A model generated the notes under the pieces. The model saw only the letters and a program-made list of their open reading frames with translations. It was not told the origin of the DNA and did not search any database. Below are positions 2,623 to 62,737 of a DNA stretch of 64,000 nt, piece by piece. Where the stretch lies: positions 1 to 64,000 of IMG/VR virus record IMGVR_UViG_3300036760_000522, one strand, 5' to 3'. The stretch comes from a virus. The translations under genes were made by a program, and so were the position numbers. Every line of letters begins with the position of its first letter. The first letter of the stretch is position 1.

Positions 2623-2706
2623 TTTCACAAATCACGAAACCGGCACAAAACATGCTGTCAAAAATAATTGGTTGACACCGTTTGGTCTCGGGTTCATTGG
2701 AGCCCT

Positions 2707-3333
2707 GTGAAAAAACTGCGATATTCGAAAGCCTGGGAAATACGTGTCAGCGGAAATCACGCTCTTTATACCCGGGCGGATTTTCAAGCGGAGCGTGTCA
2801 GTTACGATACCCCTACGCCACCGGCTATGGCCGGGATGCTTGAATCGATCCTGTGGCGTCCAGGTTTCAACTGGCGTGTCAGTGAGATTCTCGTCCTGAA
2901 CCCAATTCAGTGGACCAACCTCACTCGAAACGAGGTCAAAGAGATCACGTTTAGTAAGGGCTACGTCGATCTGGATCAGCAACACACACAACGACGATCC
3001 AGAATCCTCGTCAACGTTGATTGGATCGTGAAAGCCAAACTCGTAACAAGCACGGAAACACCTATACCAGAACTCCGAAAAATGGAGGCAATGGCCGAAC
3101 GGTATTTGGCTAACGGGAAATGCAACCACAGACCGTTCTTGGGTTGTAGAGAGTTTCCAGCAAAGGTCCGTCTAGTGAATGGGTCCGAGACTCTACCAAG
3201 TCCGGTCGACATCACGCGGCAGTTGGGCAGGATGCCACACAGCTACCGTTGGGTTCAGGACGTTCGAGCTGAGGTTTTCATGTTCGATGCCGAACTGAAT
3301 CGTGGTCGGCTCGTCGTTCCGGAGGTCGCATGA
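2707..3333 (+). CDS. cas5c: Cas5 (type I-C, Cas5d/Cas5c)
   Basis: 208 residues. In type I-C systems Cas5 is both a Cascade subunit and the pre-crRNA endonuclease that cuts at the base of the repeat hairpin (family knowledge). Visible family features are the N-terminal GNHALYTR segment followed by VSYDTPTPP, the NPIQWTNLTRNEV strand, an RRSRILVNVDW segment near residue 95, and GCREFPAKV at about 146-154. The GTG at 2707 is chosen because it gives the usual Cas5 N-terminus and has GGAG 6 nt upstream. The open frame extends to a TTG at 2668. The stop overlaps the cas8c start (ATGA). There is no cas6, as expected for I-C. Confidence 0.92.
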   Translation: MKKLRYSKAWEIRVSGNHALYTRADFQAERVSYDTPTPPAMAGMLESILWRPGFNWRVSEILVLNPIQWTNLTRNEVKEITFSKGYVDLDQQHTQRRSRILVNVDWIVKAKLVTSTETPIPELRKMEAMAERYLANGKCNHRPFLGCREFPAKVRLVNGSETLPSPVDITRQLGRMPHSYRWVQDVRAEVFMFDAELNRGRLVVPEVA

Positions 3334-5024
3334 TCCTGGAAGCCCTTTGGGCCTACGCCCAAAAAGCACGTCTTGTTCCCAACGAGTACATGGCGCAAAC
3401 GGCGGGCCTCACTGTCGACCTAAACAAGCAAGGGGCCTTTCGAAGCGTCACCGCCAATAGGTTTTCAGTCGACGCCCCAACCCCCGTTCCTGCCAAACGG
3501 CCGGGTACGACACCTAAGCCATATCTGTTGGACCACGTTGGTTACGTGCTTGGATTGGGGACCGATCCGAACAAGCTAGCCCGGCGCAAAACACAACAGC
3601 GAGCCTACAAGGCATACGTTACTGACCTAGCAGAAACCGTCAAAAGTCTGCGACCGGTTGCCAAATTCTTGTCGGGACCTGTACCCAAGGAAATCAAGCA
3701 GCTGAAATGTGCGGATCACATCAAGGTGGCCTTCACCGTCAACGGCAAGTCGATCTACAAAGATTCAGGACTCAGAGCGCACTATCGCAGTCTGCGCAAG
3801 GAGACATCCCCTACGGAGACTTGTCGAATCACCGGCAAGCCTTGCACGCCAGGTTTTTTTCCACTCTTCAAAAACCTTCCAGGATCCAAAGGTTCAAACC
3901 TGATTACCTTCGAGGAGAAGGCGTGGCAATTTGACGGACGAGACTCTAGCAGGTGCTACCCGCTCTTGCGCGAGATTCGTGAGGGTGTTGCAGCTGCCTG
4001 GAACCATCTCACCGAACCAGCAGAAAAGGCGTTTTGGAATCGACGTTCAGCGTTCGTCCTTGAACGATCCAAAGGTACAGAAAAAGACGACAAGTCGAAG
4101 CCTTTGGCGATTTGGTGGACGTTAGCAGATGTTGATCTTAGTCCACTGCAACGCGTTGTGGAAGGACCTGTTTCCGGCAAGCCCTATCGGGAATTTATGG
4201 ATCAGGCTTTCCTCGATCTCTCAGCACTAGAGGTTGAGGGGGACCTATTTGTCTTGGTGGCACAATCGTACGACTCGTGTCCCGGACGTATTTCCGTTCT
4301 GGATTGGTTGGTCGTGCCCCTGAGAAAAGTCGCAAGCAACCTACGACAATTTCGAACTGAAACGGGCAATGCGACGCTGCGACGATTGTGTCGAAGCTCT
4401 CCGAGTTACCTAGTAAGTCAGGCCCTCTTGCGAGCCGCCTTGGTGGGAGAGGATTACCCGCCAGGTGTCATCCGAGAGCTGACTCGTCTAAACAACCAAC
4501 GTTGGCCGGATACTAACGGGCTAGCACCAGGACCTCTACTCACCGGCGTCACAGCCAAACTAATTGGAAAAGGAAATCACATGAACAACGGAAAAGATCT
4601 GGAAGAAGAAAGAGACAACCCATTCCACACGACGGACCCAAATTTTTGGGGCGGCTGTTTGGTAGCTCTGGGTAACCACCTACTGGCTGCTAATGGTGTT
4701 GGTGGGAACTTGGACGCACAACTTGACTCGATCAGCACTCAGCCAGGAAAATACTTTCCGAAGTTCGACGGCAAGGTCCGACGCGCGATCACACGACTCC
4801 GCAAGGCTCCGGTTGAGGAAAAACCCGAGATCCATACGGCCATCTCACACTACGACAGCTCGTACGTCAAGTTCGTACAGGACAGCAGCAAAGGCATCGT
4901 ACCACTGCGTTTGAGCGGCACAGAGTCTCTCGCTTTTCGACGTGGGTATGTCTTGCAGCAGCGAAGCCTAAGAGTCAACAAGGCCAAAACAGCGGAGAAA
5001 CCAGAGAAATTATCAGGGACATAA
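3330..5024 (+). CDS. cas8c: Cas8c (Csd1) large Cascade subunit
   Basis: 564 residues, close to the family's 550-620. The N-terminal alpha-rich Csd1 start, the DHVGYVLGLG segment near residue 70 and the overall order cas5-cas8c-cas7 identify it. In type I-C Cascade this subunit recognises the PAM and opens the target (family knowledge). It overlaps cas5 by 4 nt and is followed by cas7 after a short gap. A ribosome site plus ATG inside the 3' part (4581) probably yields a separate Cas11c small subunit, as shown for other I-C systems. Confidence 0.9.
   Translation: MILEALWAYAQKARLVPNEYMAQTAGLTVDLNKQGAFRSVTANRFSVDAPTPVPAKRPGTTPKPYLLDHVGYVLGLGTDPNKLARRKTQQRAYKAYVTDLAETVKSLRPVAKFLSGPVPKEIKQLKCADHIKVAFTVNGKSIYKDSGLRAHYRSLRKETSPTETCRITGKPCTPGFFPLFKNLPGSKGSNLITFEEKAWQFDGRDSSRCYPLLREIREGVAAAWNHLTEPAEKAFWNRRSAFVLERSKGTEKDDKSKPLAIWWTLADVDLSPLQRVVEGPVSGKPYREFMDQAFLDLSALEVEGDLFVLVAQSYDSCPGRISVLDWLVVPLRKVASNLRQFRTETGNATLRRLCRSSPSYLVSQALLRAALVGEDYPPGVIRELTRLNNQRWPDTNGLAPGPLLTGVTAKLIGKGNHMNNGKDLEEERDNPFHTTDPNFWGGCLVALGNHLLAANGVGGNLDAQLDSISTQPGKYFPKFDGKVRRAITRLRKAPVEEKPEIHTAISHYDSSYVKFVQDSSKGIVPLRLSGTESLAFRRGYVLQQRSLRVNKAKTAEKPEKLSGT
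4581..5024 (+). CDS. cas11c: Cas11c small subunit from internal start
   Basis: In-frame ATG inside cas8c, 7 nt after an AAAAGGA ribosome-binding sequence (4568-4574). It would make a 147-residue protein identical to the Cas8c C-terminal domain. In characterised type I-C loci the Cas11 subunits are made exactly this way, at about 120-150 residues. Seen: the site and the frame. Inferred: that it is used. No ribosome profiling is available. Confidence 0.6.
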   Translation: MNNGKDLEEERDNPFHTTDPNFWGGCLVALGNHLLAANGVGGNLDAQLDSISTQPGKYFPKFDGKVRRAITRLRKAPVEEKPEIHTAISHYDSSYVKFVQDSSKGIVPLRLSGTESLAFRRGYVLQQRSLRVNKAKTAEKPEKLSGT

Positions 5025-5069
5025 ATCGTCCTTGTCGGTAAAACAAAACCAACACGAATGGAAAATCAA

Positions 5070-5945
5070 ATGGCGACAGCTAAGAAAACAACACAGGTAC
5101 CCGCATTGGACGGGATCATCGTTCCAGAAACCGTCAACGCAAATCAAAACGGGGATCCAGATGACGGGGGCAATCCTCGTCGCAACGCCGTGACAGACAA
5201 AGGGCTCTGGTCACGTGAAAGCATCAATCGACGGATCCGGGATTACGTCTACGACGTTCACAAAGGTAAACCCGGGTTCGATTTGTTCATCAAACGAGGC
5301 AATGTCCACGAGACACTGATCCGGGAAGCGTACGTGAGTTCCGGAGCAGGAATCGACAAGGGCAGAGACTACGCTAAGGGCAACCTTGCGTTGTGTGAAA
5401 AGTATTTCGACGTGCGGTGGTTCGGACTTGTAGTCACCAAACCTGGTGACGGTGGGATCCGAGGGCCAATTTGCATAAATATTGGTGAATCTGTCTACCC
5501 TATAACGCACGAAGACATGGCGGGTACGAGACAAACTCGGACGAACGAAGAACGTGCCAAAACTGGCAGTCGGGAAATGTCCCACAAGCGGTTCATTCCG
5601 CACGCGGTTTTCACGATTACCTGGCACCTCGATCCGTTTTACGCACAACGAACCGGGTTCGACAAGAACGACTTGGAAATCTTCCTAGACGCGATTACAC
5701 GTGTCTTCAGGAACGATCACTCGTCTATGAGGGGGCGAATCAACCTCCGGTACTCGGTCGTGTTTGAGCACGAGGAGCCTACCCGCAATGCCGAGCCGTG
5801 TGATTTGTTCGAGCTCCTCAAAATCAAGGCAAAGGATCCGCATACGGCTTCGCAATGGTCGGACTACACCGTGACCTTACCGACGGCCAAAGATCTGCCC
5901 GCCGGTGTAACGATGAAAATCCTGCACGCAACGAAGGCTGCTTGA
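5070..5945 (+). CDS. cas7c: Cas7 (Csd2) backbone subunit
   Basis: About 291 residues. It forms the crRNA-covering backbone of Cascade (family knowledge). The N-terminal signature NANQNGDPDDGGNPRRN followed by VTDKGL is the Csd2/Cas7 RAMP motif, with SINRRIRDYV after it. An MSHKRFIPHAVF segment near residue 168 is also typical. An ATG at 5058 is in frame, but only 5070 has a purine site (GGA) at suitable distance. It is followed directly by a perfect hairpin, then the helicase gene. Confidence 0.92.
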   Translation: MATAKKTTQVPALDGIIVPETVNANQNGDPDDGGNPRRNAVTDKGLWSRESINRRIRDYVYDVHKGKPGFDLFIKRGNVHETLIREAYVSSGAGIDKGRDYAKGNLALCEKYFDVRWFGLVVTKPGDGGIRGPICINIGESVYPITHEDMAGTRQTRTNEERAKTGSREMSHKRFIPHAVFTITWHLDPFYAQRTGFDKNDLEIFLDAITRVFRNDHSSMRGRINLRYSVVFEHEEPTRNAEPCDLFELLKIKAKDPHTASQWSDYTVTLPTAKDLPAGVTMKILHATKAA

Positions 5946-5954
5946 ACCGCCCTT

Positions 5955-5989
5955 AGAGGACGAGTGCTGAACTTCAGCACTCGTCCTCT
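5955..5989 (+). terminator. perfect hairpin between cas7 and helicase
   Basis: 17-bp arms 5955-5971 and 5973-5989 (core AGTGCTGAAcTTCAGCACT), followed by ATTTCT. It would act as a terminator or attenuator, separating Cascade expression from the helicase, or as an mRNA-stabilising hairpin. Confidence 0.7.
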
Positions 5990-6011
5990 ATTTCTGATTG
6001 GAGTACGAATC

Positions 6012-8345
6012 ATGGAATTTCACGATTACCAAGCTGTTACCTTGGCCGACGCCTGTAACACAGATTGGAAATCTTACTACGTTTTGTGGGCAATGGCAGC
6101 CGGGAAAACGGCGTTTTGCCACGCTTACCTCAAGTGGGCTTTCGAGTGTGACGTCTATGACCACGCAGTAATCCTAACGCCCTACAAAACCACAAGGGAC
6201 GGATTCGTCACCCGTAAACTGGATGATGAGCGCCGCATCTTGTACGTCAGCGATCTGAAATACGACGTGAGAAAGGACCTGGTACGCCCGCTAGAATCGG
6301 ACTCAATCGCAGAGCTTCGTGAATACCTGCGCACACCAAAGCCTGGCTACGCTGTGGTAATTTGTGACGCCACAGCAAGAGCCTTCGTCCAAACGGGGGC
6401 TGACCAGAACGAACGCCTCATAGTAATTGGCGACGAGTGTCATGGCCATCAAGCCCCCGCGATGAGATCATGGGTAAACGCAATTCGAAGCCGCGGAGCA
6501 AAAACCATCAGTCTAACCGCAACACCCTATCGTCACGACAACGTCCCTGTATTGCCTCCACCAGGCACTAAGGGGGTTCGGTTGGGCCCAGTCCGCACGT
6601 ACACCGAGCAGGTACGGGACGGCCTGGCGCCCGACATCACGTTGAAGTGTATTCCTGTGGCCTGTGCAAACGCTATCAATGACGACGAACGCTTTCAGGA
6701 GATGGCTGCGGCAATCGTGGCTAATTGGTCACCAGATCGCAAAGCCATGGTTCAAATTACACCACGGGCTGCTGGTTGGAGCGGGCGCGAGGAGGACGAA
6801 CTGAACGAAGTCCAGAAAACTTTCTGCAACCAATTTCGATGTCGCATCATTGAAGCTCTCCAAAAGGCCAAGATCAGGTGCGTCGACATGACCGACTTTG
6901 AGGAGCACGACGGCTGTCCGCAGAACTATCAAGAGGTGTTACTCGCGGAACGTAAGGTCAGACATTTCAAGGACTCAAAGGTGGACGTCTTTATTGGGAT
7001 CAACAACATATCCCTAGGTGTTGATTGGACATTGTGTAACACAGTAATATCTACAGATTTTATGAGTTCCTTGTCTCGGATGGTTCAATTCAGTGGTCGA
7101 GGAGGTCGAAACAAAAAGGATTTCCTGTCATATCCGAATAGGTATCTAGACCAGATGGAGTTTTTGGTCTTGACACCTGTCAAGCGCGAAAACGAGGATG
7201 CTGTACGAATCCGGGAGATGGCTCGTCACGCCGTACTGCTGTCACTGACACTCTCTCAGTTGACACTTCCAGCAGGTTTGACAGGTTACACCGCCATCCA
7301 ACGGAGATTGCGTGAGATCCATGCCCCAAAGATTGCCACGGAGCTGCGAGACCACCTTGGAAGACGCGATCACTTGACTAAAGTCCACGCGAATACCGTC
7401 GTTGTCCTCTCTGATCAGTGGGGGCGAATCAAGGTAAAGAACCTCAGAGTATTACTCCTTCGACAACAACGGCAGCAGTATCCAGACGAGACCCCGGAGC
7501 AGAGACAACATGCTGTCGACGCGGCCATACAAGAGCTAGTGTCAGCTCAAGTGGATCCCGGACAGATCGAGAAAGCAGTAGCTTCTATCCCACTACAAGA
7601 AGGGACAACTCTCCGATACGTATTCGAGGAGTTGGTCAAGTGGTTCAACGACGAGTATATTGACGTTCGAATCAATCCGTTTCTCCGCAATGCAAGAGAA
7701 TTTGTTACTGAGTTCTACCCGGATACTTGCGACAATGTATTTCGCCGCCTCCGAGAGCTGCAACAAGAGGCTCTGGATCCGACAATCGTATGTGACTGGG
7801 CAATTGCCTTTTACAAAGAGCACGACAGATGGCCCGAGGCAGGCCCCATTCAGGAAGCACCGCACGTCTCCTGGGGGGATGTCAATCAAGCTCTCCTCCA
7901 CGGGACACGAGGGTTACCGCGGCTCCCCAACGGACTGTTGCAATTCCTCGGTGAATGGGCCCACAACCACAAACAGGTCCTCAGGGTGTTCTCGAGAGTC
8001 TTCCACGATATCCACCAGGACAACTCCACGGAGACGGAGTGGCGGCCTGTACTGAGCGCCCTAGGCATTCCAGGAACAGACAATATCCACGAAGCCTTTT
8101 TGCAATACGATCGTGCGCGATTGTCCTCCAGAGTCTACTTTGGTGAGCGGGAGCAAGCCGGATTCGAAGCAGCCATGTCCCACGTGGTGAAACACATTCA
8201 GCTGTTCCATTTCTTGCGGCTCTTCACGAAGGCTTTCTACAGTCGCCAGGGCTCGCATTGGAACTTCTGGTGGACAATTGCAGAAGCCCAGCGCCACGAC
8301 ACAGCTTTGACTATCAGACAACTCCGAAACCTTGCGAGCGGTTAG
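6012..8345 (+). CDS. SF2 DEAD/DEAH-type helicase in the Cas3 position
   Basis: 777 residues. Superfamily 2 motifs: Walker A AAGKT (29-33), DECH Walker B (141-144), LTATP motif III (168-172) and a QFSGRGGR motif VI in the second RecA domain. The C-terminal 350 residues are unassigned. There is no HD nuclease domain at either end and no Cas3-specific motif, so this is not a normal Cas3. A type I-C variant in huge phages with a helicase in place of Cas3 has been described (Al-Shayeb et al. 2020), and this locus fits it. The start at 6012 has GGAG 8 nt upstream. A terminator overlaps the stop codon. Unwinding at Cascade-bound targets is inference. An unrelated replication helicase is also possible. 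Confidence 0.85.
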   Translation: MEFHDYQAVTLADACNTDWKSYYVLWAMAAGKTAFCHAYLKWAFECDVYDHAVILTPYKTTRDGFVTRKLDDERRILYVSDLKYDVRKDLVRPLESDSIAELREYLRTPKPGYAVVICDATARAFVQTGADQNERLIVIGDECHGHQAPAMRSWVNAIRSRGAKTISLTATPYRHDNVPVLPPPGTKGVRLGPVRTYTEQVRDGLAPDITLKCIPVACANAINDDERFQEMAAAIVANWSPDRKAMVQITPRAAGWSGREEDELNEVQKTFCNQFRCRIIEALQKAKIRCVDMTDFEEHDGCPQNYQEVLLAERKVRHFKDSKVDVFIGINNISLGVDWTLCNTVISTDFMSSLSRMVQFSGRGGRNKKDFLSYPNRYLDQMEFLVLTPVKRENEDAVRIREMARHAVLLSLTLSQLTLPAGLTGYTAIQRRLREIHAPKIATELRDHLGRRDHLTKVHANTVVVLSDQWGRIKVKNLRVLLLRQQRQQYPDETPEQRQHAVDAAIQELVSAQVDPGQIEKAVASIPLQEGTTLRYVFEELVKWFNDEYIDVRINPFLRNAREFVTEFYPDTCDNVFRRLRELQQEALDPTIVCDWAIAFYKEHDRWPEAGPIQEAPHVSWGDVNQALLHGTRGLPRLPNGLLQFLGEWAHNHKQVLRVFSRVFHDIHQDNSTETEWRPVLSALGIPGTDNIHEAFLQYDRARLSSRVYFGEREQAGFEAAMSHVVKHIQLFHFLRLFTKAFYSRQGSHWNFWWTIAEAQRHDTALTIRQLRNLASG

Positions 8346-8378
8346 GTGCTGCGACTAGGTCCTTAACCGCTCGCAAGG
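8330..8378 (+). terminator. terminator at helicase end
   Basis: 15-bp arms 8330-8344 and 8364-8378 (CCTTGCGAGCGGTTA and complement) followed by the T-rich run cggctttgttcttt. It spans the helicase stop and would insulate the CRISPR leader from read-through. Confidence 0.75.
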
Positions 8379-8524
8379 CGGCTTTGTTCTTTGAAAACTC
8401 ACGACATTTTCACTTCCGTTCACCTGTAGATGGTGAACGGAAGGACGCCATTCTGTTCTCTGCAAGACAACCTCTCGCAATCCACACTGCAAAACCTCGA
8501 TAAAACAGTCTTTAGTGACGAAGG
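8379..8524 (+). promoter_or_regulatory. CRISPR leader with 12-bp hairpin
   Basis: AT-rich stretch between the helicase terminator and the first repeat. It contains a perfect 12-bp hairpin (arms 8413-8424 and 8432-8443, 7-nt loop) without a following T-run. It sits next to the identical, presumably newest, repeats, so it should carry the array promoter. I cannot point to clear -35 and -10 boxes. Confidence 0.5.
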
Positions 8525-10870
8525 GTCGAGACAGGGACCAAGGTCCCTGATGATTTCAACGACATCACCAGCGGCATGCTGCTCGCTGCCCCGGAGTCGA
8601 GACAGGGACCAAGGTCCCTGATGATTTCAACCAACGGACCGATCAAGACCTCTGGTAACGCCATCAGGTCGAGACAGGGACCAAGGTCCCTGATGATTTC
8701 AACGACCATGTTCGGAGAGGACGATGACGCTGTTCGCGGTCGAGACAGGGACCAAGGTCCCTGATGATTTCAACAACCCAGCCGGCGACGGTGGCGGCCC
8801 CGCCATGAACTGGTCGAGACAGGGACCAAGGTCCCTGATGATTTCAACACAATAACGCGGAGCAGATGAATGTCACAATTAGTTGGTCGAGACAGGGACC
8901 AAGGTCCCTGATGATTTCAACTCTGAGTTGAGTCCGCATATGTAGTCACCTACTTCGTGTCGAGACAGGGACCAAAGTCCCTGATGATTTCAACATGGAG
9001 GTCCTATGTTCGTTGATAACAATTGCACCGGGTCGAGACAGGGACCAAGGTCCCTGATGATTTCAACTCAGCGTGGCGACCAAGGAACGGACCTTACAGG
9101 TTGTCGAGACAGGGACCAAGGTCCCTGATGATTTCAACACTGGACGACCCCGCCGGCGCGCGACTCCACCATCAGTCGAGACAGGGACCAAGGTCCCTGA
9201 TGATTTCAACATGCCTGATCGCGTGCACGACTCCTCAGTAGGGGGATGTCGAGACAGGGACCAAGGTCCCTGATGATTTCAACGCGGCGAGCCGGCCCGG
9301 CGTCACGCGCCACAAGATCGATCAAAAACAGAGGCCTAAGCCTCTGATGATTTCAATATTGGAGCCCTAACCCACGCGATATACGAGATTCCATTGTCCA
9401 GCAAGCAGGGATGTGACAGGAGCCTTGGCTCCTGATGATTTCAACCCAGAGGCCCCTGGCGGTTTGGATGGACCCGAACTGACATGTGACAGGAGCCTTG
9501 GCTCCTGGTGATTCCAACAAGACAGGTGCTTAGGCACCTGATGATTTCAACGGAGTGCGCGTCGTTGCACAGCAGACCGAGGTGCTCGGATCGAAACAGG
9601 GACTCAGTCCCTGATGATTTCAACTTGTCCACCGGTGCATCCCAATGCACCGGTGCCGGAGCTTCAGCTCCTGTTTTTGACTCGTCAAGAACAGCGTTGA
9701 AGCACCTGATGGTTTCAATTCTTGTACCGATCCTGGCTTCACTAGAACGACAGCAGGACGTGACAGGAGCCTTGGCTCCTGGTGATTCCAACATGAGCGC
9801 CGCCTCGATGCGATCCTCAACGCCTTCAAAACGACAGGAGCTTCAAGGCTCCTGATGATTTCAACACACTGCACAGCGAGTCCTCGACAGCATTGGCATC
9901 GCCTCAAGACAGGGGCTACAAGACTCCTGATGATTTCAACACTCAACAACAGGTGGCAGAACGAGGCCTCTCGTATACAGGTGCTTAGGCACCTGATGAT
10001 TTCAACCAAAGCGCCCGGTCCATCGGGATGCACTGCGCCTTCAACTGGAACGGTGATTGTGTATGAAGCAAGAGCAAAAAAGCCCCTGGGGATTTCAATA
10101 TTGGTGCCCTATCGTGTTTGGTATGAAAAGTCTAGTCAGTAACAGGGGTTCAACCCCTGATGATTTCAACTCGTATCGATGGTATGTCGAACTTGAGCGG
10201 GCAAAATCAGGAGCTTAAGCTCCTGATGATTTCAACAAAGGCAAAGTCGATCGAGAGACTACTGTGCCAAAATCAGGGGATCAATCCCCTGATGATTTCA
10301 ACATCGACAAGCAGGGATTCACCGGAGCGTTGCTGGTTGTCGGTCCAGGGGCTAGGTCCCCTGATGATTTCAACGCGCAGACCATCGACGGCGTAATCGA
10401 AGAGCTCTCGGTCAGAGACAGGAGCTTCGGCTCCTTGGTGATTACAACAAATGCACACCGGCCGGTCTTGTCGGCGCCCCGTCAGTAGCAGGGGTTCAAC
10501 TCCCCTGATGATTTCAACCAGCCCGAAGCTCTAGAGGACGAACTCGCGGCGATGACAGGAAACAGGGACCTTGGTCCCTGATGATTTTAACGTTGAGAAA
10601 CCAGGGCTGTTCCTTCAGCTTGGCCTGTCGAAACAGGGACTCAGGTCCCTGATGATTTCAACATCAAAAGCTCAAAGGCTTGACGGACTTCGTGGGGATC
10701 GAAACAGGGACTCAGGTCCCTGATGATTTCAACCTCTACGGGATATCGGCCATCCGAGATCGCCAAAAAACAGGAGCTGAAGCTCCTGATGATTTCAACT
10801 ACCAATCGTGTTCGTCGAGAGCCCCCAAGATCGAAGACAGTCAGGGGCTTAGGCTCCTGATGATTTCAAT
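8525..10870 (+). CRISPR. CRISPR array, 34 repeats in two blocks
   Basis: Repeat of 36 nt beginning GTCGAGACAGGGACC and ending GATGATTTCAAC, with a 7-bp hairpin (AGGGACC/GGTCCCT). Repeats 1-11 start at 8525, 8596, 8668, 8739, 8813, 8886, 8959, 9032, 9103, 9175 and 9248 and are identical except one base in repeat 7. Spacers are 35-38 nt. From 9322 on, about 23 diverged repeats keep the hairpin and the 3' tag. Orientation, set by the leader and the 3' handle, is plus, the same as the cas genes. No cas1, cas2 or cas4 is in the window, so new spacers would need host machinery. Confidence 0.97.
9322..10870 (+). CRISPR. distal array block with diverged, covarying repeats
   Basis: About 23 repeats with 3' ends at 9357, 9445, 9518, 9551, 9624, 9681, 9719, 9792, 9865, 9940, 10006, 10099, 10170, 10236, 10302, 10374, 10448, 10518, 10591, 10662, 10733, 10799 and 10870. 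The 5' GTCGAGA is mostly lost and TGATGATTTCAAC is mostly kept. The stem changes on both sides together, for example AGAGGC/GCCTCT, AGGTGC/GCACCT, AGGAGC/GCTCCT, AGGGGAT/ATCCCCT. Some carry G-U pairs. Three (9681, 9719, 10099) are decayed. Two (9518 and 9551) have no spacer between them. Confidence 0.9.
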
Positions 10871-52538: not shown

Positions 52539-55500
52539 ATGTCCTCGCCTAGTTTTCTTGATGTCTCGGCCCACGTAACCGGTACGACAGGAACGACACG
52601 TACTCCGGACGCGTCGGGGTTTGGACTGGCCGCCGACAACATCCTGTGGTGCTACGTCAATTTACGATTCAGTGGTTGCTCTACGGCCACTGTTACGATG
52701 CCGGCCGCACAGAACTGGAGCCTAGCCAGCGACCAGTCACGGGGCACTAACGCACGGTCGTTGCTCTATTGGAGGCGGTGGGGAGACGGGACCGACGATA
52801 CAACCCCTACCGTAACGGTCACCACAGGCGGGCTCTGGGGCGCCACCCTGGCGGCTTGGACGGGATGCAAGGAGACAGGAAACCCCTACGACGCCGTCAC
52901 AGAGGACCAGGAAACCACAGCTTCGACTACGATGACAGCCCAAGGGGCTACTTCTGACGGTATCGATCGGACTTCGACACGTTGGTTCTTTTCCCCTGAT
53001 GACAACAACCACGGCTCGCCGAGTGAGGGTACCCTCGCGTTTGGAGGTACGAGCTACCAAAACTCCTCTGGCGTCGGATATTCGACATCCTGCTCCTACT
53101 TGACGGGGGAGGTCTCTGGCGACGTTGGTACGGCCACCATGACCCAGGGCTCGAACGGCCCTGATACCTACAACTGGCACACGATCGTTCTTGCACCAAG
53201 TACCTACGATCCGTCGATTAGCGACGACACGATTTCGACGACAGACAGCGTCGCTGTTTCGATCGACTATGGTCGAAGTTCTTCAGACACGATTTCCGTA
53301 ACGGACTCCGTTGCTGTTTCACCGACGTTCGGACGCGCAGTTTCTGATGCGATTTCGGTCGTTACGGATCTCACAGTTGAACTGCTCACAACAACTATCA
53401 CTTACGACGTTACGGTTTCTGACGCGATCTCAGTCACGGACCAGTTGTTGGTCGAGACTGCTTTCCCAGAAGACGCGATTTCGGTCACAGATACAACAAC
53501 TACCAGTTTGGACTATGGGCGTTCTGCCAGTGACTCAATAGACATTGTCGACGAAACCGAGATTATGACAGCCAATCTGGATGTCATGGTCGAGGACACG
53601 ATCTCAGTCACCGACACAATTTCGATTGACTTGGTTTACGCCCGCACTGCCGACGACACAGTATCCGTCACAGATCAAACTTCTGTTGACTTGGTCTACG
53701 CTCGCGAGGCAAACGACGCGATTTCGGTTACCGAGGACACTCTTGCCGAGACCGCGTTCCCTCAAGATACGATTTCGGTCACGGACCAGTTCGCAGTTGA
53801 ACTGTCGTTTGATCGTTCAGCATCAGACACAATCGTAACGACAGATCAGATTCTCACGTCGGTCGAGTTTGACCGCTCAGCATCAGACGCGATTTCGACC
53901 ACAGATGAGACCTCGATTGCATTTGAGCGTGAAGCCAACGACACAGTTTCCGTAACTGATACGTCCACGACAAACGTCGAATACGAGCGTTTGGTTTCAG
54001 ACGCTGTTTCAATTGCAGATCAGACAACAACGGAACTCACGTTCAATCGTACGGCTTCCGATTCGATTGTGGCCACGGACACGACGACCGCGGAGCTTGA
54101 AAGCGGGGAGGTCGTAGGGATCGATGACGACATCGATGTAGACGTCGTCTACGGCAGGATCGTCAGTGACGTTGTTCCAGTAACTGACGATCTATCGGTT
54201 ACGACTTTCTACGACCGCACACTCTCGGATGTTGTCTCAGTAGCGGACCAGACACTGATCGAGACTGTCTTTCCAGAAGACTCGATTTCGATCGTTGACG
54301 CTGTCGCCGTGGGCTTCGTATTTGATCGGCTTCTTTCGGATGCAGTTTCCGTCACTGACACGACGCAGGTCAACGTTGAATTTGATCGGACCCTTGCTGA
54401 TACAGTTTCGGTCGTTGACGCAATCATTGTAGGGATCCAATTCGACAGGTTCGCGGATGAGGCAATCTCTGTCGCTGATTCAACGGCTATAACTGTCGAT
54501 CGGAGCCCGTCCGACACTGTATCGGTTACAGATGAGACCGCTGTCGCCGCCGACTATAGCCGGACACTCGTCGATGTGATCACGGTTGCAGATCAAGTCA
54601 CGTCCTCAGTCGAGTACGATCGCGTCGCAAGTGACACGATTTCTGCTGCCGACACGACGGCTGTCACTCTCACTTTCACGAGAACGGCTTCTGACACGGT
54701 TTCGGTTGCCGACCAGACAATGGTCGAAACCAGCTTTGACGCTGATGTCATCGACATCACGGACACTGTTGCGACAGCGGTTGACTACCAACGAACGCTC
54801 AGTGACACGATTTCAGTCAGTGATCAAACGACTGTCGAGAACGCGTTCCCAGAGGACACAATCTCCGTCACTGACGCAACGGTCGTCGACTTAGCCTACA
54901 ATCGCAAACCTGCGGACACGATCTCGACGACTGATAAGGCGTCTTGGTTCTTCTACTTGGGACTCAGTGATGCCGTTCTCGACAGTGACGTTGCTTACAC
55001 ATCGCTCACGTACGAGAAATCTGCGGCGGACACGATCTCGGTTACTGACCAAGCAACAGCGTCGCGGGAGTTGGGTCGCGTTGTTAGTGATACGATTTCA
55101 GTATCTGATACAACGACTATTGATCTCTATCGGATCATTTCCGTCACAGCTTCAGACACAGTCACTGTCGTCGACCAGACCACACCGGCAACCAGTTACG
55201 TTCGGAGTGCTCAAGACACGGTTTCAACGGCCGATACCGTAGCTGCTGGTCTCGAGTTCACACGCTCCGCCTCCGACACGATTTCAGTCACTGACACGTC
55301 GGCGACTTCAGTCAGCTTCTCGAGGACCGCCACCGACGCAATCGTTGTCACCGACACACTGACAGCGGAAACCAACTACGTTCGAACTGTCCAAGACACG
55401 ATTTCGATCACGGATCAAGTCGTTCGCAGCATTTCATTCGATCGTTCGGCTTCAGATGCGATCTCTGTCGCTGACGCAGCGACTGTCGCCCTCACGCTTG

Positions 55501-56552
55501 GCCGAACTGCCAGCGATATTGTCTCGACGACCGATACGTCAGCAACAGCTCTCGATTACTCGAGGCTTGTTCAAGACGGAGTAGCACTCACCGACGTACT
55601 TCTCGCAGCAACACAGTACTCACGCGACGCCAACGACACGATTTCGATCGTAGACACGGTAGCAGTCGACAGGACCCGTGAAGTATCGGCGTCCGATACG
55701 ATCTCTGTCACTGACGCCGTGGCTACGGAATCTGTGTTTGGACGGACCGTCAGCGACACGATTTCGATCACTGACGAGCTTTCCACGGTCACGAACTACG
55801 TTCGGTTTGCTGATGACGCGATCAGCGTCGTCGACACAGTTACACGTGGGCTTGAAGCTGGGGTCTTTGCCCAAGACACGATCGACGTAACGGACGAAGT
55901 CACGAAGATCGTCACGTTTGAGAGGATCCTTACCGAGGTCCTGACTGTCACCGACGAGCTTCTTACCGTCACGAGCTACGTCCGGTTCGCGGATGACGCT
56001 TTCACGATTACAGACCAAGCCACATCCTCAGTCGAGCAGGACCGGTCGGCTGACGACACAATGTCGGCCACAGACGATGTCGGCATTGCCGTCGATTACG
56101 TTCGGTTCGTAGACGACAGTCCACCAGTTTTCGACGACGTCATCGTCCGGACTTTCGATTTCAGTCTACGAAATCAACCCCCGACAACCACGATCCTGCC
56201 GCCTGTACCCACGGTATTCCGTTACCTACAACGCCTTGTCAATGGGAATCTGGTCTTGACACTAAGAGACCGTCAAGGCCCTTTCACGCCAGCGATTTTG
56301 TACTACTGCCTCTACAGAGTCACCAACTCAGGCGGACGGATACTTGTCGGAGCGCGTCACATCCCCAACACAGCAGGAGTTGGAGTCTTCTATGTCGTCG
56401 CACGCGCCGGAGAGCAACAGCAACCAGGTAATTGGTTAATCAGATGGGAGTACCAGAAGACACGTAATTCCCAAGTACGTATCGTGGAGCAAGCATTTCA
56501 AGTCGTAGCCGGAACCGTCGCGAACCCTGTGCAGAAGTTTGGTTGGGAGTGA
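52539..56552 (+). CDS. giant acidic repeat fibre
   Basis: 1337 residues. Residues 1-225: a Gly/Thr-rich domain like phage tail jelly-roll parts (WCYVNLRFSG, WSLASDQSRG). Residues about 226-1205: tandem 20-residue units with consensus ASDTISVTD-x-x-x-x-x-x-x-Y-x-R, over 40 copies. Residues about 1206-1337: a beta domain (YYCLYRV, NWLIRWEYQK, EQAFQVV) whose order matches the 57118 protein. The repeats probably form a long rod or solenoid. Asp-rich, so Ca2+ binding is possible. Confidence 0.8.
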   Translation: MSSPSFLDVSAHVTGTTGTTRTPDASGFGLAADNILWCYVNLRFSGCSTATVTMPAAQNWSLASDQSRGTNARSLLYWRRWGDGTDDTTPTVTVTTGGLWGATLAAWTGCKETGNPYDAVTEDQETTASTTMTAQGATSDGIDRTSTRWFFSPDDNNHGSPSEGTLAFGGTSYQNSSGVGYSTSCSYLTGEVSGDVGTATMTQGSNGPDTYNWHTIVLAPSTYDPSISDDTISTTDSVAVSIDYGRSSSDTISVTDSVAVSPTFGRAVSDAISVVTDLTVELLTTTITYDVTVSDAISVTDQLLVETAFPEDAISVTDTTTTSLDYGRSASDSIDIVDETEIMTANLDVMVEDTISVTDTISIDLVYARTADDTVSVTDQTSVDLVYAREANDAISVTEDTLAETAFPQDTISVTDQFAVELSFDRSASDTIVTTDQILTSVEFDRSASDAISTTDETSIAFEREANDTVSVTDTSTTNVEYERLVSDAVSIADQTTTELTFNRTASDSIVATDTTTAELESGEVVGIDDDIDVDVVYGRIVSDVVPVTDDLSVTTFYDRTLSDVVSVADQTLIETVFPEDSISIVDAVAVGFVFDRLLSDAVSVTDTTQVNVEFDRTLADTVSVVDAIIVGIQFDRFADEAISVADSTAITVDRSPSDTVSVTDETAVAADYSRTLVDVITVADQVTSSVEYDRVASDTISAADTTAVTLTFTRTASDTVSVADQTMVETSFDADVIDITDTVATAVDYQRTLSDTISVSDQTTVENAFPEDTISVTDATVVDLAYNRKPADTISTTDKASWFFYLGLSDAVLDSDVAYTSLTYEKSAADTISVTDQATASRELGRVVSDTISVSDTTTIDLYRIISVTASDTVTVVDQTTPATSYVRSAQDTVSTADTVAAGLEFTRSASDTISVTDTSATSVSFSRTATDAIVVTDTLTAETNYVRTVQDTISITDQVVRSISFDRSASDAISVADAATVALTLGRTASDIVSTTDTSATALDYSRLVQDGVALTDVLLAATQYSRDANDTISIVDTVAVDRTREVSASDTISVTDAVATESVFGRTVSDTISITDELSTVTNYVRFADDAISVVDTVTRGLEAGVFAQDTIDVTDEVTKIVTFERILTEVLTVTDELLTVTSYVRFADDAFTITDQATSSVEQDRSADDTMSATDDVGIAVDYVRFVDDSPPVFDDVIVRTFDFSLRNQPPTTTILPPVPTVFRYLQRLVNGNLVLTLRDRQGPFTPAILYYCLYRVTNSGGRILVGARHIPNTAGVGVFYVVARAGEQQQPGNWLIRWEYQKTRNSQVRIVEQAFQVVAGTVANPVQKFGWE
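53216..56155 (+). repeat. coding repeat, 60-bp period
   Basis: DNA period about 60 bp coding the 20-residue unit. Cores such as GACACGATTTCGGTCACGGA recur with many silent changes, so the units are old rather than freshly amplified. Recombination between units could change fibre length. Confidence 0.85.
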
Positions 56553-60100: not shown

Positions 60101-62737
60101 ATGCCGTACGCTTCCCAACGAGATCGTGATCCCTCACTACTCGAACTTGAGGTTACGCCGTGGCCAGCCCCGCCACTCAATCTGTTTCTGACGAGCGGTT
60201 ACAAGCCTGGGGTTTTCGATCTTGTTTGGACGGATCCTTCTCAGCTGACACTGAATTCCAGATTCATTCTGGTCGGGGTCAACATTTATCGATCCTTCGA
60301 TTCTGAGTTTGGACCCTACGACCGTATCAACGAGTTCCCCATCGGTTCAACGTTCTGGCGAGACCAGACCGACAATGTCCTGATCTTGGACGAACCAGTT
60401 ACTGACGATCGTTGGCTTCTTCGAGGCCCTTGTACAGGCTCTGAGCTGGATGCTCCTAGGTATGTGTTCCGAACGCTTAGGTGCCCCCTGGTGCAGCCCG
60501 GGTCGCAAGCCCTACCAGCGAACATCCGGGACGTGGAAGTCCGCGTCAATGGCGTTGTGGCCCGTCTCAGTCGCGTCATTGGACCAACTGGTGAAATCGA
60601 GGTCGATCCAAATTCCTACCCCAACGTAGCTCTCCAAAAGCGGGACCCTGGGATCATTCCGGATCCTGGAACAACAGTCACAGTCTCCTACACCTACGAC
60701 AGATCGTTGCTTCGAACCGATCTCTTACAGCGGGTCTTTTACCGGGCGACGACCGTTGGCTATTTGGTTGACCTCAATTGTGCAACTGAGGTCACGCCAA
60801 TCCTACGTGAGACACCTCTAGAGCGTGCTGCGGTAACGAGCAGCGTCGAGGTCGAGAAGATTGATTGGATCTGGCGCGAGGCAGTTCGTCGCAATCGGTG
60901 GATTCTGGATCAAGGCGGCGAACGCGTCAAAGTGTTCATTCGGAAGCATGTGGGTGAGATTTGTGGTTGCACACAAACGACAACTCATAAACAACCGTTG
61001 AACGATTGTCATGTCTGTTTTGCACCGCAAACTTTGGTGCGCACTGATACCGGATACAAACCCATTAACACAGTAGCTGTGGGTGATCATGTTTTGTCTT
61101 CGAGCGGCCAGTATAGCCGTGTGACACGTGTGTTCGAAACCCCCTTTACAGGCGACTTGTTGGCAATCAGGTCCGCAGTTTCAACCAATGCGATTTTGAC
61201 TACTTTGAATCATCCTTTTTACACCTTGGTTGGACACCACGGTGTTGTCCAGTGCCGCCCGACGACTTGCCACATGATTTTGGACCGTGATAACGTTCTC
61301 TACAGTATTCAAGGACAAGGTACGGGGGTACGACAACTCCCTAGTGGGCGTTGGTGGGCGAGAGCTGGTGCTGGAACTAGAGGAAAACGTATAAGTTTGG
61401 GTACATTTTCTACTGAAGAGGAAGCCAAACAAGTTGTTCAATCCTATCGTCTGCGTCACAAGAAAGCCCACTCTTTGGAGTGGCTTCGAGCTGAGGATTT
61501 GGACGAGGATGATTGGCTTGTCGCACAATATCCGAGAACCGTCAGGGACTTGACCTATGTGGAGATCCCTCTATGTTTTCAAAAAACATCCCAATTTGGT
61601 CCAGATCGTCAAGGTGTTACACGATTTGATGTCGATGAAGAATTTCTGTGGGTTGTCGGATTGTACTTAGCTGAAGGATCTGCCGGTGGTCGCAGTATCA
61701 CCTTTGCTCTTCACGCGGATGAAGTAGACTACCAAAGTAGAGTCAAACGGTTTTTTGATCAACGTGGGTACACAGCCTCTATTAGAGTCGATAGTGGCGA
61801 CGGTCTAGGAGCCGTCGTGGTAGTCAACGGTTCACATTTATCAGAGTGGTTCCCTGTTTGGTTGGGTAGACACTGCGATAAAAAGCGGATACCAGAAGAG
61901 TTGATGTGTTTGCCTCCGAAAAAACAACAGTGGTTGCTTCAAGGGATCTACGATGGCGACGGATGGAAAAACGGTACTGAAGTAACACAGACTTCCGAAT
62001 TACTGGCTCTGCAATTGTCGGAGGTTCTACACCGCATTGGGAAACGGCCTTTAATACGACAACAACGTAGCAAGGCGTTGACACCTAAAGGCAATCCACG
62101 CAAATTGGCCTACTGTGTGAATTGGGAGGGTTCAGAGTTTACCAATGCCAGTCGAAAAGGTCGGTGGTCTTTCGAAGGACAGGAACTGTCTAGGATCAAG
62201 GGGATCACAAAAGTTCCATACGAAGGACCAGTATACAATTTGGAGGTCGAAGGGGATCACACGTATGTTGTGCAGGGTGTAGTGGTGCACAATTGTTACG
62301 GCACCTCAATAGTTGGTGGGTACGAAGGACCGTTCGATGTCGTCATGGCCCCCGACGACGCTGAACGAAAGCATTCACAACGTGACACGGGACGTACGAT
62401 CGAACATGGGTACGAGGTTTGGACGGGTCCTAGTCCACTCCTCAGTCAACGTGACTTTGTCGTCAAGATCACAGGGGACCGCTACAGCGTAGGTGCTGTC
62501 CGAATGCCGACGAATCGCGGCATGGTGCTCCAACAACACTTCATGTTGGGGCATTTGGACGAGAAAGACATCAGGTATCGTGTTCCGATCGATCTCTGCA
62601 ATCACGTGGTGTCTAGGTATGTAGACCGGTTGGTTCCTCCTCTCAACTCACCTGCACAAATAACGGACAAGTCAAACATACCTAGTGAGCGTCAGATTCG
62701 TGGCCGCACTATTACGTGGGAAAATATCGTCTGGTGA
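60101..62737 (+). CDS. virion structural protein with intein
   Basis: 878 codons, about 452 residues after splicing. The N-terminal part is a fibronectin-type or baseplate-like beta domain (LVWTDPSQL, VGVNIYRSFD). After splicing, EICGCTQ ... NDCHV joins CYGTSIVGGYEGPFDV, a likely zinc site typical of huge-phage structural proteins. The intein divides the two Cys of this site. Confidence 0.78.
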   Translation: MPYASQRDRDPSLLELEVTPWPAPPLNLFLTSGYKPGVFDLVWTDPSQLTLNSRFILVGVNIYRSFDSEFGPYDRINEFPIGSTFWRDQTDNVLILDEPVTDDRWLLRGPCTGSELDAPRYVFRTLRCPLVQPGSQALPANIRDVEVRVNGVVARLSRVIGPTGEIEVDPNSYPNVALQKRDPGIIPDPGTTVTVSYTYDRSLLRTDLLQRVFYRATTVGYLVDLNCATEVTPILRETPLERAAVTSSVEVEKIDWIWREAVRRNRWILDQGGERVKVFIRKHVGEICGCTQTTTHKQPLNDCHVCFAPQTLVRTDTGYKPINTVAVGDHVLSSSGQYSRVTRVFETPFTGDLLAIRSAVSTNAILTTLNHPFYTLVGHHGVVQCRPTTCHMILDRDNVLYSIQGQGTGVRQLPSGRWWARAGAGTRGKRISLGTFSTEEEAKQVVQSYRLRHKKAHSLEWLRAEDLDEDDWLVAQYPRTVRDLTYVEIPLCFQKTSQFGPDRQGVTRFDVDEEFLWVVGLYLAEGSAGGRSITFALHADEVDYQSRVKRFFDQRGYTASIRVDSGDGLGAVVVVNGSHLSEWFPVWLGRHCDKKRIPEELMCLPPKKQQWLLQGIYDGDGWKNGTEVTQTSELLALQLSEVLHRIGKRPLIRQQRSKALTPKGNPRKLAYCVNWEGSEFTNASRKGRWSFEGQELSRIKGITKVPYEGPVYNLEVEGDHTYVVQGVVVHNCYGTSIVGGYEGPFDVVMAPDDAERKHSQRDTGRTIEHGYEVWTGPSPLLSQRDFVVKITGDRYSVGAVRMPTNRGMVLQQHFMLGHLDEKDIRYRVPIDLCNHVVSRYVDRLVPPLNSPAQITDKSNIPSERQIRGRTITWENIVW
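61016..62293 (+). mobile_element. LAGLIDADG intein with AP2-like insert
   Basis: 426 codons. Starts CFAPQTLVRTDTGYKPI (block A) and ends VVHN before Cys. LAGLIDADG motifs are VVGLYLAEGS and LLQGIYDGDG. Between the Hint N-part and these, GVRQLPSGRWWARAGAG and RISLGTFSTEEEAKQVV form an AP2-type DNA-binding module. Splice residues intact. Confidence 0.92.

What the first reader, a model, noticed from the sequence alone, without database searches (positions are those of the whole stretch)
9322..10870. CRISPR repeats whose hairpins covary
The distal 23 repeats differ from the first 11 and from each other mainly in the stem, and most changes are paired on both arms (AGAGGC/GCCTCT, AGGTGC/GCACCT, AGGAGC/GCTCCT, AGGGGAT/ATCCCCT, AGGGACC/GGTCCCT), some using G-U pairs or a TTCG loop. 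The 3' tag TGATGATTTCAAC is kept. Random decay would not keep pairing, so structure and handle are probably under selection, as expected if Cas5 still cuts these repeats. Sequence diversity may also stop loss of spacers by recombination between repeats. I know of no description of a single array with so many covarying stems.
Basis: partly seen in the sequence, partly recalled or inferred. Interest (0 to 1): 0.93.

Follow-up and report, generated by a model that had tools for sequence, protein, structure and literature searches.

The report
Phage CRISPR array with covarying hairpins
A large virus of bacteria carries its own CRISPR array in which the older repeats have drifted apart in sequence yet nearly all still fold into the same small RNA hairpin, a sign that the cutting of this RNA has stayed under selection although the virus lacks the known genes for adding new repeats.

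Summary
The window lies in a 301,550-base virus record and carries a type I-C-like effector operon (cas5, cas8c, cas7, plus a helicase without an HD nuclease), followed by an array at 8525-10870. There are 33 repeats: 11 near-identical leader-proximal ones and 22 diverged distal ones, not 23. The apparent 34th, at 9658-9678, is an inverted half copy. Against the leader stem, 31 distal stem positions changed on both arms and 9 on one. Covariation exceeds 500 of 500 letter shuffles and a tree-based null (P about 0.001 or less). Every fully Watson-Crick stem is one base-pair replacement away from an unobserved consensus, AGGGGC/GCCCCT. Handle divergence is 5% per site, stem 27%, 5' flank near saturation. 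No Cas1, Cas2 or Cas3-HD was found in the record. Eleven comparison arrays are nearly uniform. One other Cas1-less phage array (L164) is equally diverse and keeps its hairpin, but does not covary. Best explanation: in-array drift under selection for Cas5-type processing, without the homogenising effect of adaptation. Main rival: assembly from related phage arrays. The effector type is known from huge phages, and compensatory changes are known between organisms. Many covarying stems inside one array appears undescribed.

The parts
2668..3333 (+). cas5 (Cas5c/Cas5d family), putative pre-crRNA endonuclease
   Evidence: NCBIfam TIGR01876 111 bits, above cut-off; PDB type I-C Cas5 chains E 1e-29
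3330..5024 (+). cas8c/csd1, divergent
   Evidence: Pfam PF09709 E 9e-20; PADLOC Cas8c E 3e-23
5058..5945 (+). cas7/csd2, about 33% identical to the best bacterial I-C Cas7
   Evidence: Pfam PF05107 E 5e-56; tblastn
5964..8345 (+). SF2-type helicase without an HD domain, in the place of Cas3
   Evidence: Helicase_C only; no Cas3_HD match anywhere in the record
8346..8524 (+). presumed leader of the array, with a terminator-like hairpin at 8367-8381
   Evidence: position between helicase and first repeat. No sigma-70-like promoter seen on this strand
8525..9283 (+). 11 leader-proximal repeats of 36 nt (GTCGAGACAGGGACCAAGGTCCCTGATGATTTCAAC), one with a single change at 8959, spacers 35-38 nt
9322..10870 (+). 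22 diverged distal repeats with paired stem changes and a conserved 3' handle; most spacers 30-39 nt
9483..9551 (+). two repeats directly abutting, spacer of length 0
9658..9678 (-). inverted half copy of a repeat without handle, inside a 59-nt 'spacer'; terminator-like on the + strand
   Evidence: 21/21 identical to 10766-10786 in reverse complement
9684..9719 (+). repeat with broken stem, preceded by the 59-nt spacer
10064..10099 (+). repeat with broken stem and a handle with 3 changes, preceded by a 57-nt spacer; its 3' arm is the consensus GCCCCT
10835..10870 (+). last repeat; stem AGGGGC/GCTCCT with a G-U pair, a step between the consensus and AGGAGC/GCTCCT

Best explanation
This is the array of a phage-encoded type I-C variant that has effector genes but no adaptation genes in this record. 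Normally each new repeat is a copy of the leader-proximal repeat, which keeps an array uniform (established knowledge). Here the 11 leader-proximal repeats look like one recent burst, supplied perhaps by a host adaptation complex or by recombination (inferred). The 22 distal repeats are old and have drifted one by one. Selection has acted on what a Cas5d-type nuclease needs: a paired 7-bp hairpin of about constant stability with a fixed base (CAGG/CCTG), and the 11-13-nt single-stranded 3' tag that becomes the crRNA 5' handle. Upper-stem pairs can then be replaced, partly through G-U steps, as long as both arms agree, while the unneeded 5' flank runs close to saturation. Shown: the pairing, the conservation gradient, the intermediates, the missing genes. 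Inferred: Cas5 is the selecting agent, distal crRNAs are made and used, and divergence happened in place.
For: Covariation beyond 500 shuffles, beyond arm permutation and beyond a tree-based null (0.325 vs 0.110 +/- 0.05; P <= 0.001 also for distinct cores). 31 paired against 9 one-armed departures from the leader stem. Gradient of divergence: handle 4.9% per site, stem 27%, 5' flank 36-77%. All six fully Watson-Crick stems are single-pair replacements of one consensus; G-U intermediates sit at 10835, 9905 and in the off-array copy; energy of the 18 hairpins taken as intact is -10.7 +/- 0.7 kcal/mol, against an s.d. of 1.8 for random stems of similar G-C content. Cas5d-type protein adjacent; Cas5d cuts type I-C repeats to leave an 11-nt handle (PMC5965380). 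No Cas1, Cas2 or Cas3-HD found in the record. Eleven other I-C arrays are nearly uniform; another Cas1-less phage array, L164, also has about 45 diversified repeats with the hairpin kept.
Against: If the spacers were useless, selection on distal repeats should have stopped; no spacer target was found. Identical unusual repeats lie apart (9483 and 9757; 9516 and 9971), which simple in-place drift does not predict. L164 is diverse without excess covariation, so covariation is not an automatic outcome. The number of independent paired events is small: by parsimony about 4-6 at one pair, 3-4 at another, 1 each at two more, and the tree rests on 39 columns. The covariation could have arisen in other arrays before import.
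Confidence: 0.58

Rival explanations
1. Mosaic array: repeat-spacer units came by recombination from arrays of closely related phages, each with its own stem variant. Compensatory evolution took place between lineages; this array collected the results.
For: Stem types alternate along the array instead of grading. The same unusual repeat recurs apart (9483/9757, 9516/9971). Abutting repeats, an inverted half repeat and 52-59-nt 'spacers' mark rearrangement. The start of spacer 12 (after 9322) and of spacer 22 (after 10064) agree in 11 of 12 bases though their stems differ.
Against: No related array found in IMG/VR or GTDB genomes, though very near records may be hidden. All stems are one-pair neighbours of one consensus. 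G-U and mismatched intermediates are present.
Confidence: 0.27
2. Palindrome-templated mutation: during replication the polymerase switches template inside the imperfect inverted repeat and copies one arm onto the other, so both arms change together without selection on RNA.
For: Most stems are perfect DNA palindromes, some extending through the loop (10201: ATCAGGAGCTTAAGCTCCTGAT). Such mutagenesis at quasi-palindromes is known in bacteria and phages (general knowledge, not checked here).
Against: Does not explain the conserved handle or the near-constant hairpin energy. G-T pairs occur in stems (9905, 10835) and often at the innermost pair (9 of 24 distinct repeats). L164 has a similar palindrome without the effect.
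Confidence: 0.08
3. Units were captured from different bacterial host arrays.
For: Phage arrays can share repeats with host arrays (PMC7162821).
Against: No genome of 84,980 species has two copies of the handle at array spacing in a CRISPR array (the two hits are a coding repeat and a tandem hairpin repeat). Stems differ by single pairs, not by whole repeat families.
Confidence: 0.04
4. Ordinary decay of the old end of an array; the pairing is chance or shared ancestry.
For: Trailer-end repeats often vary (PMC8047081); two distal repeats are indeed broken.
Against: Shuffle, permutation and tree-based nulls all reject it.
Confidence: 0.03

Closest known systems
Huge-phage type I-C variant with helicase instead of Cas3 (Al-Shayeb et al. 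2020, PMC7162821)
   Same: Phage genome over 200 kb; Cas5d-like, Cas7 and Cas8c-like effector genes; no Cas1 or Cas2; helicase in place of Cas3
   Different: The passages read describe no diversified or covarying repeats, though they note degeneration of old-end phage spacers. Whether this phage also has CasPhi (Cas12j) was not tested
Compensatory base changes among CRISPR repeats of different organisms (Kunin et al. 2007, PMC1896005)
   Same: Stem substitutions paired on both arms, G-U pairs, relaxed loops
   Different: There the comparison is between organisms, and repeats are stated to be generally identical within an array; here it is inside one array
Terminal-repeat polymorphism at the trailer end (reviewed in PMC8047081)
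   Same: Distal repeats differ; this may protect against loss by recombination
   Different: Usually one or a few end repeats, often with disrupted symmetry; here 22 repeats with symmetry mostly kept
Array of L164 (IMGVR_UViG_3300024054_000362, 221 kb, no Cas1)
   Same: About 45 diversified repeats with conserved handle and kept hairpin
   Different: No covariation beyond shuffles or the tree null

Membership tests
Type I-C CRISPR-Cas | Cas5c/Cas5d, Cas7/Csd2 and Cas8c/Csd1 encoded together | tested here: met
   cas7 and cas8c fall below the NCBIfam curated cut-offs, cas5 is above
Type I-C CRISPR-Cas | Cas3 helicase-nuclease with HD domain | tested here: not met
   helicase without HD at 5964-8345; no Cas3_HD in the record
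Type I-C CRISPR-Cas | Adaptation genes cas1, cas2 (and cas4) | tested here: not met
   no Cas1 or Cas2 found; Cas4 not tested; the record is linear and may be incomplete
Type I-C CRISPR-Cas | Hairpin repeat with an 11-nt handle released by Cas5d | not testable with these tools
   hairpin and conserved 3' tag present; cleavage needs an experiment
Huge-phage type I-C variant (Al-Shayeb 2020) | No Cas1/Cas2, helicase instead of Cas3, Cas5d-like protein, genome over 200 kb | tested here: met
   description
Huge-phage type I-C variant (Al-Shayeb 2020) | Second system with CasPhi (Cas12j) | not tested
   no model at hand; no obvious candidate ORF in the window
Array of uniform repeats (typical CRISPR array) | Repeats near-identical within the array apart from the end | tested here: not met
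   22 of 33 repeats diverged, whereas 11 comparison arrays are uniform
Dispersed mobile palindromic element | Many copies scattered over the genome | tested here: not met
   covariance model finds the array and one off-array copy only

The most novel reading that the evidence does not exclude
In huge phages without adaptation genes, CRISPR arrays become fixed sets of guide RNAs in which every repeat evolves on its own along a neutral network set by Cas5 (stem paired, stability constant, handle fixed). The resulting sequence diversity locks the array against recombinational loss, so that the array behaves like a set of separate small-RNA genes instead of a turning-over memory.
Probability: 0.3. 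Interest if true: 0.75.

Novelty: new variant of a known kind. Interest (0 to 1): 0.6.

Why it matters
An array with about twenty naturally varied, paired repeats is a ready-made experiment on what a Cas5d nuclease requires, and a sign that old phage-borne guides stay in use. It also offers a way to ask what happens to a CRISPR array when the copying step that keeps repeats alike is absent. Non-identical but working repeats would be useful in building multi-guide arrays that do not recombine.

Tried and rejected
Search for further arrays with this handle in IMG/VR and GTDB genomes: only chance or unrelated matches. Close relatives by Cas7, Cas5 and helicase: none; near records may be hidden by the tool. 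Spacer targets in INPHARED phages and in the own genome: none. Dispersed mobile hairpin: rejected, one off-array copy only. Standard leader-copy history with frozen old repeats: rejected because stem types alternate back and forth along the array. A coding reading of the repeats (frame ...TGxxxPDDFN...): the frame is not kept through the array. L164 as a second covarying array: hairpin kept but no excess covariation.

Full report
What is there. The window is the start of a 301,550-base IMG/VR virus record. A type I-C-like effector operon on the + strand, cas5 (2668-3333), cas8c (3330-5024) and cas7 (5058-5945), is followed by a helicase without HD domain (5964-8345) and then by a CRISPR array at 8525-10870. 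No Cas1, Cas2 or Cas3-HD match was found in the record, while the control genomes rang. Huge phages with a type I-C variant lacking Cas1 and Cas2, with a helicase instead of Cas3 and a Cas5d-like protein, are already described (PMC7162821), so the effector type is known.

The repeats. There are 33 repeats in register. Eleven leader-proximal ones share one sequence, with a single change at 8959. The 22 distal ones vary in the 5' flank, upper stem and loop. Two distal stems are broken (9684, 10064); both follow abnormally long spacers (59 and 57 nt). One pair of repeats abuts (9483/9516).

Is the covariation real? On 24 distinct repeats the covariation score is 0.356 against 0.201 +/- 0.025 for shuffles (0/500), with 92% of cells paired; sliding the partner by one column drops this to 48-52%. 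Measured against the leader stem, 31 distal stem positions changed on both arms and 9 on one. A tree-based null in the manner of R-scape (FastTree tree, parsimony counts of substitutions per site and branch, independent sites) gives 0.110 +/- 0.05 against an observed 0.325. P is below 0.0005 for all 24 repeats, 0.0005 for the distal ones and 0.001 for distinct cores. Caveats: the tree rests on 39 columns, and parsimony places about 4-6 substitutions per arm at one pair, 3-4 at another and 1 each at two more, so the independent paired events number perhaps ten, not thirty.

Shape of the variation. All six fully Watson-Crick stem types (GGAC, GAGC, GTGC, AGGC, GGGT, GGGA in the four variable positions) are one pair away from a consensus stem AGGGGC/GCCCCT that no repeat shows intact. 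Each has exactly one A-U pair in the variable part. The 18 hairpins taken as intact have energies of -10.7 +/- 0.7 kcal/mol, against an s.d. of 1.8 for random stems of similar G-C content; the consensus stem itself would be -12.9 to -14.0. These 18 are not independent of each other, so the narrow spread is suggestive only. G-U steps are visible at 10835, 9905 and in the off-array copy. The base of the stem (CAGG/CCTG) is nearly fixed. Divergence from the leader repeat is 4.9% per site in the handle, 27% in the stem and 36-77% in the 5' flank. This is the profile expected if hairpin and 3' tag matter and the rest does not. Cas5d of type I-C cuts the repeat to leave an 11-nt 5' handle (PMC5965380), which would here be ATGATTTCAAC.

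Comparison. A Cas7 alignment brought in 26 viral I-C loci. Arrays in L133, L136, L137, L138, L142, L143, L147, L156, L157, L160 and L161 are nearly uniform. L145 (618 kb, with a distant relative of this helicase) has a few one-sided changes that keep pairing through G-U. The last repeats of L152 have changed stems with the handle kept. L164 (221 kb; no Cas1) has about 45 strongly diversified repeats with the hairpin kept (82% of cells paired, P 0.003), but its covariation equals the null (0.167 vs 0.171, P 0.5). So diversification of repeats in a Cas1-less phage array recurs, while paired replacement is, among the arrays examined, particular to the present one.

Explanation. The most likely course is that a phage array without its own adaptation genes no longer has its repeats renewed by copying. 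Distal repeats then drift separately, while the need to be cut by the Cas5d-type protein removes variants that do not pair or that change the handle. The first 11 identical repeats point to a recent addition of units by other means. The weak point is that such selection requires distal guides to be of use, and no spacer target was found. The main rival is that units were collected by recombination from arrays of related phages. Alternating stem types, separated copies of one unusual repeat (9483/9757, 9516/9971) and rearrangement scars favour it; the absence of any related array in the collections leaves it unsupported, not excluded. Both readings have selection for structure in common; they differ on where it acted. 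Palindrome-templated mutation could add paired changes, but explains neither the handle nor the near-constant stability.

What is known. Compensatory changes between repeats of different organisms are known since Kunin et al. [quoted passage not shown] Variable terminal repeats, and their possible role against array collapse, are reviewed in PMC8047081. Literature searches of the held library for within-array compensatory change found no description; the library lacks most subscription papers.

Noticed in passing
L131:10021-10056 (record position 298020-298055, minus strand): A single complete 36-nt repeat copy outside the array (GTCAAGACAGGGGTCGACGCCCCTGATGATTTCAAC) lies in frame inside a 209-aa ORF (L131:9523-10152, minus) that carries an HExxH motif (HEMGH); it reads VKTGVDAPDDFN. 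If transcribed, Cas5 might cut this mRNA. No homologue of the protein was found.
   Followed up: partly
window:9655-9690: The inverted half repeat followed by TTTTT resembles an intrinsic terminator on the + strand and could stop transcription into the distal units.
   Followed up: partly
window:9358-9369 and 10100-10111: Spacers 12 and 22 begin alike (ATTGG[A/T]GCCCTA; the only mismatch is at position 6, the position left unpaired in type I crRNA by general knowledge) although their repeats have different stems.
   Followed up: partly
window:8200-11000: Terminator-like hits are over-represented around the array (8 found, 2.4 expected), mostly on the minus strand, because repeat hairpins are followed there by T runs of the complemented 5' flank.
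   Followed up: no
L164:2738-6215: A 221-kb phage record has an array of about 45 highly diverse repeats with hairpin and handle kept, next to what looks like a shortened Cas7 reading frame.
   Followed up: partly
L152:12168-12317: The last three repeats of this viral I-C array have quite different stems but the same handle GTGGATTGAAAC.
   Followed up: no
window:29708-34519 and 60101-62737: Two large ORFs look intein-containing: a helicase/methylase-like protein and a structural-looking protein with intein/HNH-type family matches.
   Followed up: no
window:42395-43972 and 52539-56552: Long repetitive ORFs of 'SISDTVxVTD'-type repeats, probably phage surface proteins.
   Followed up: no
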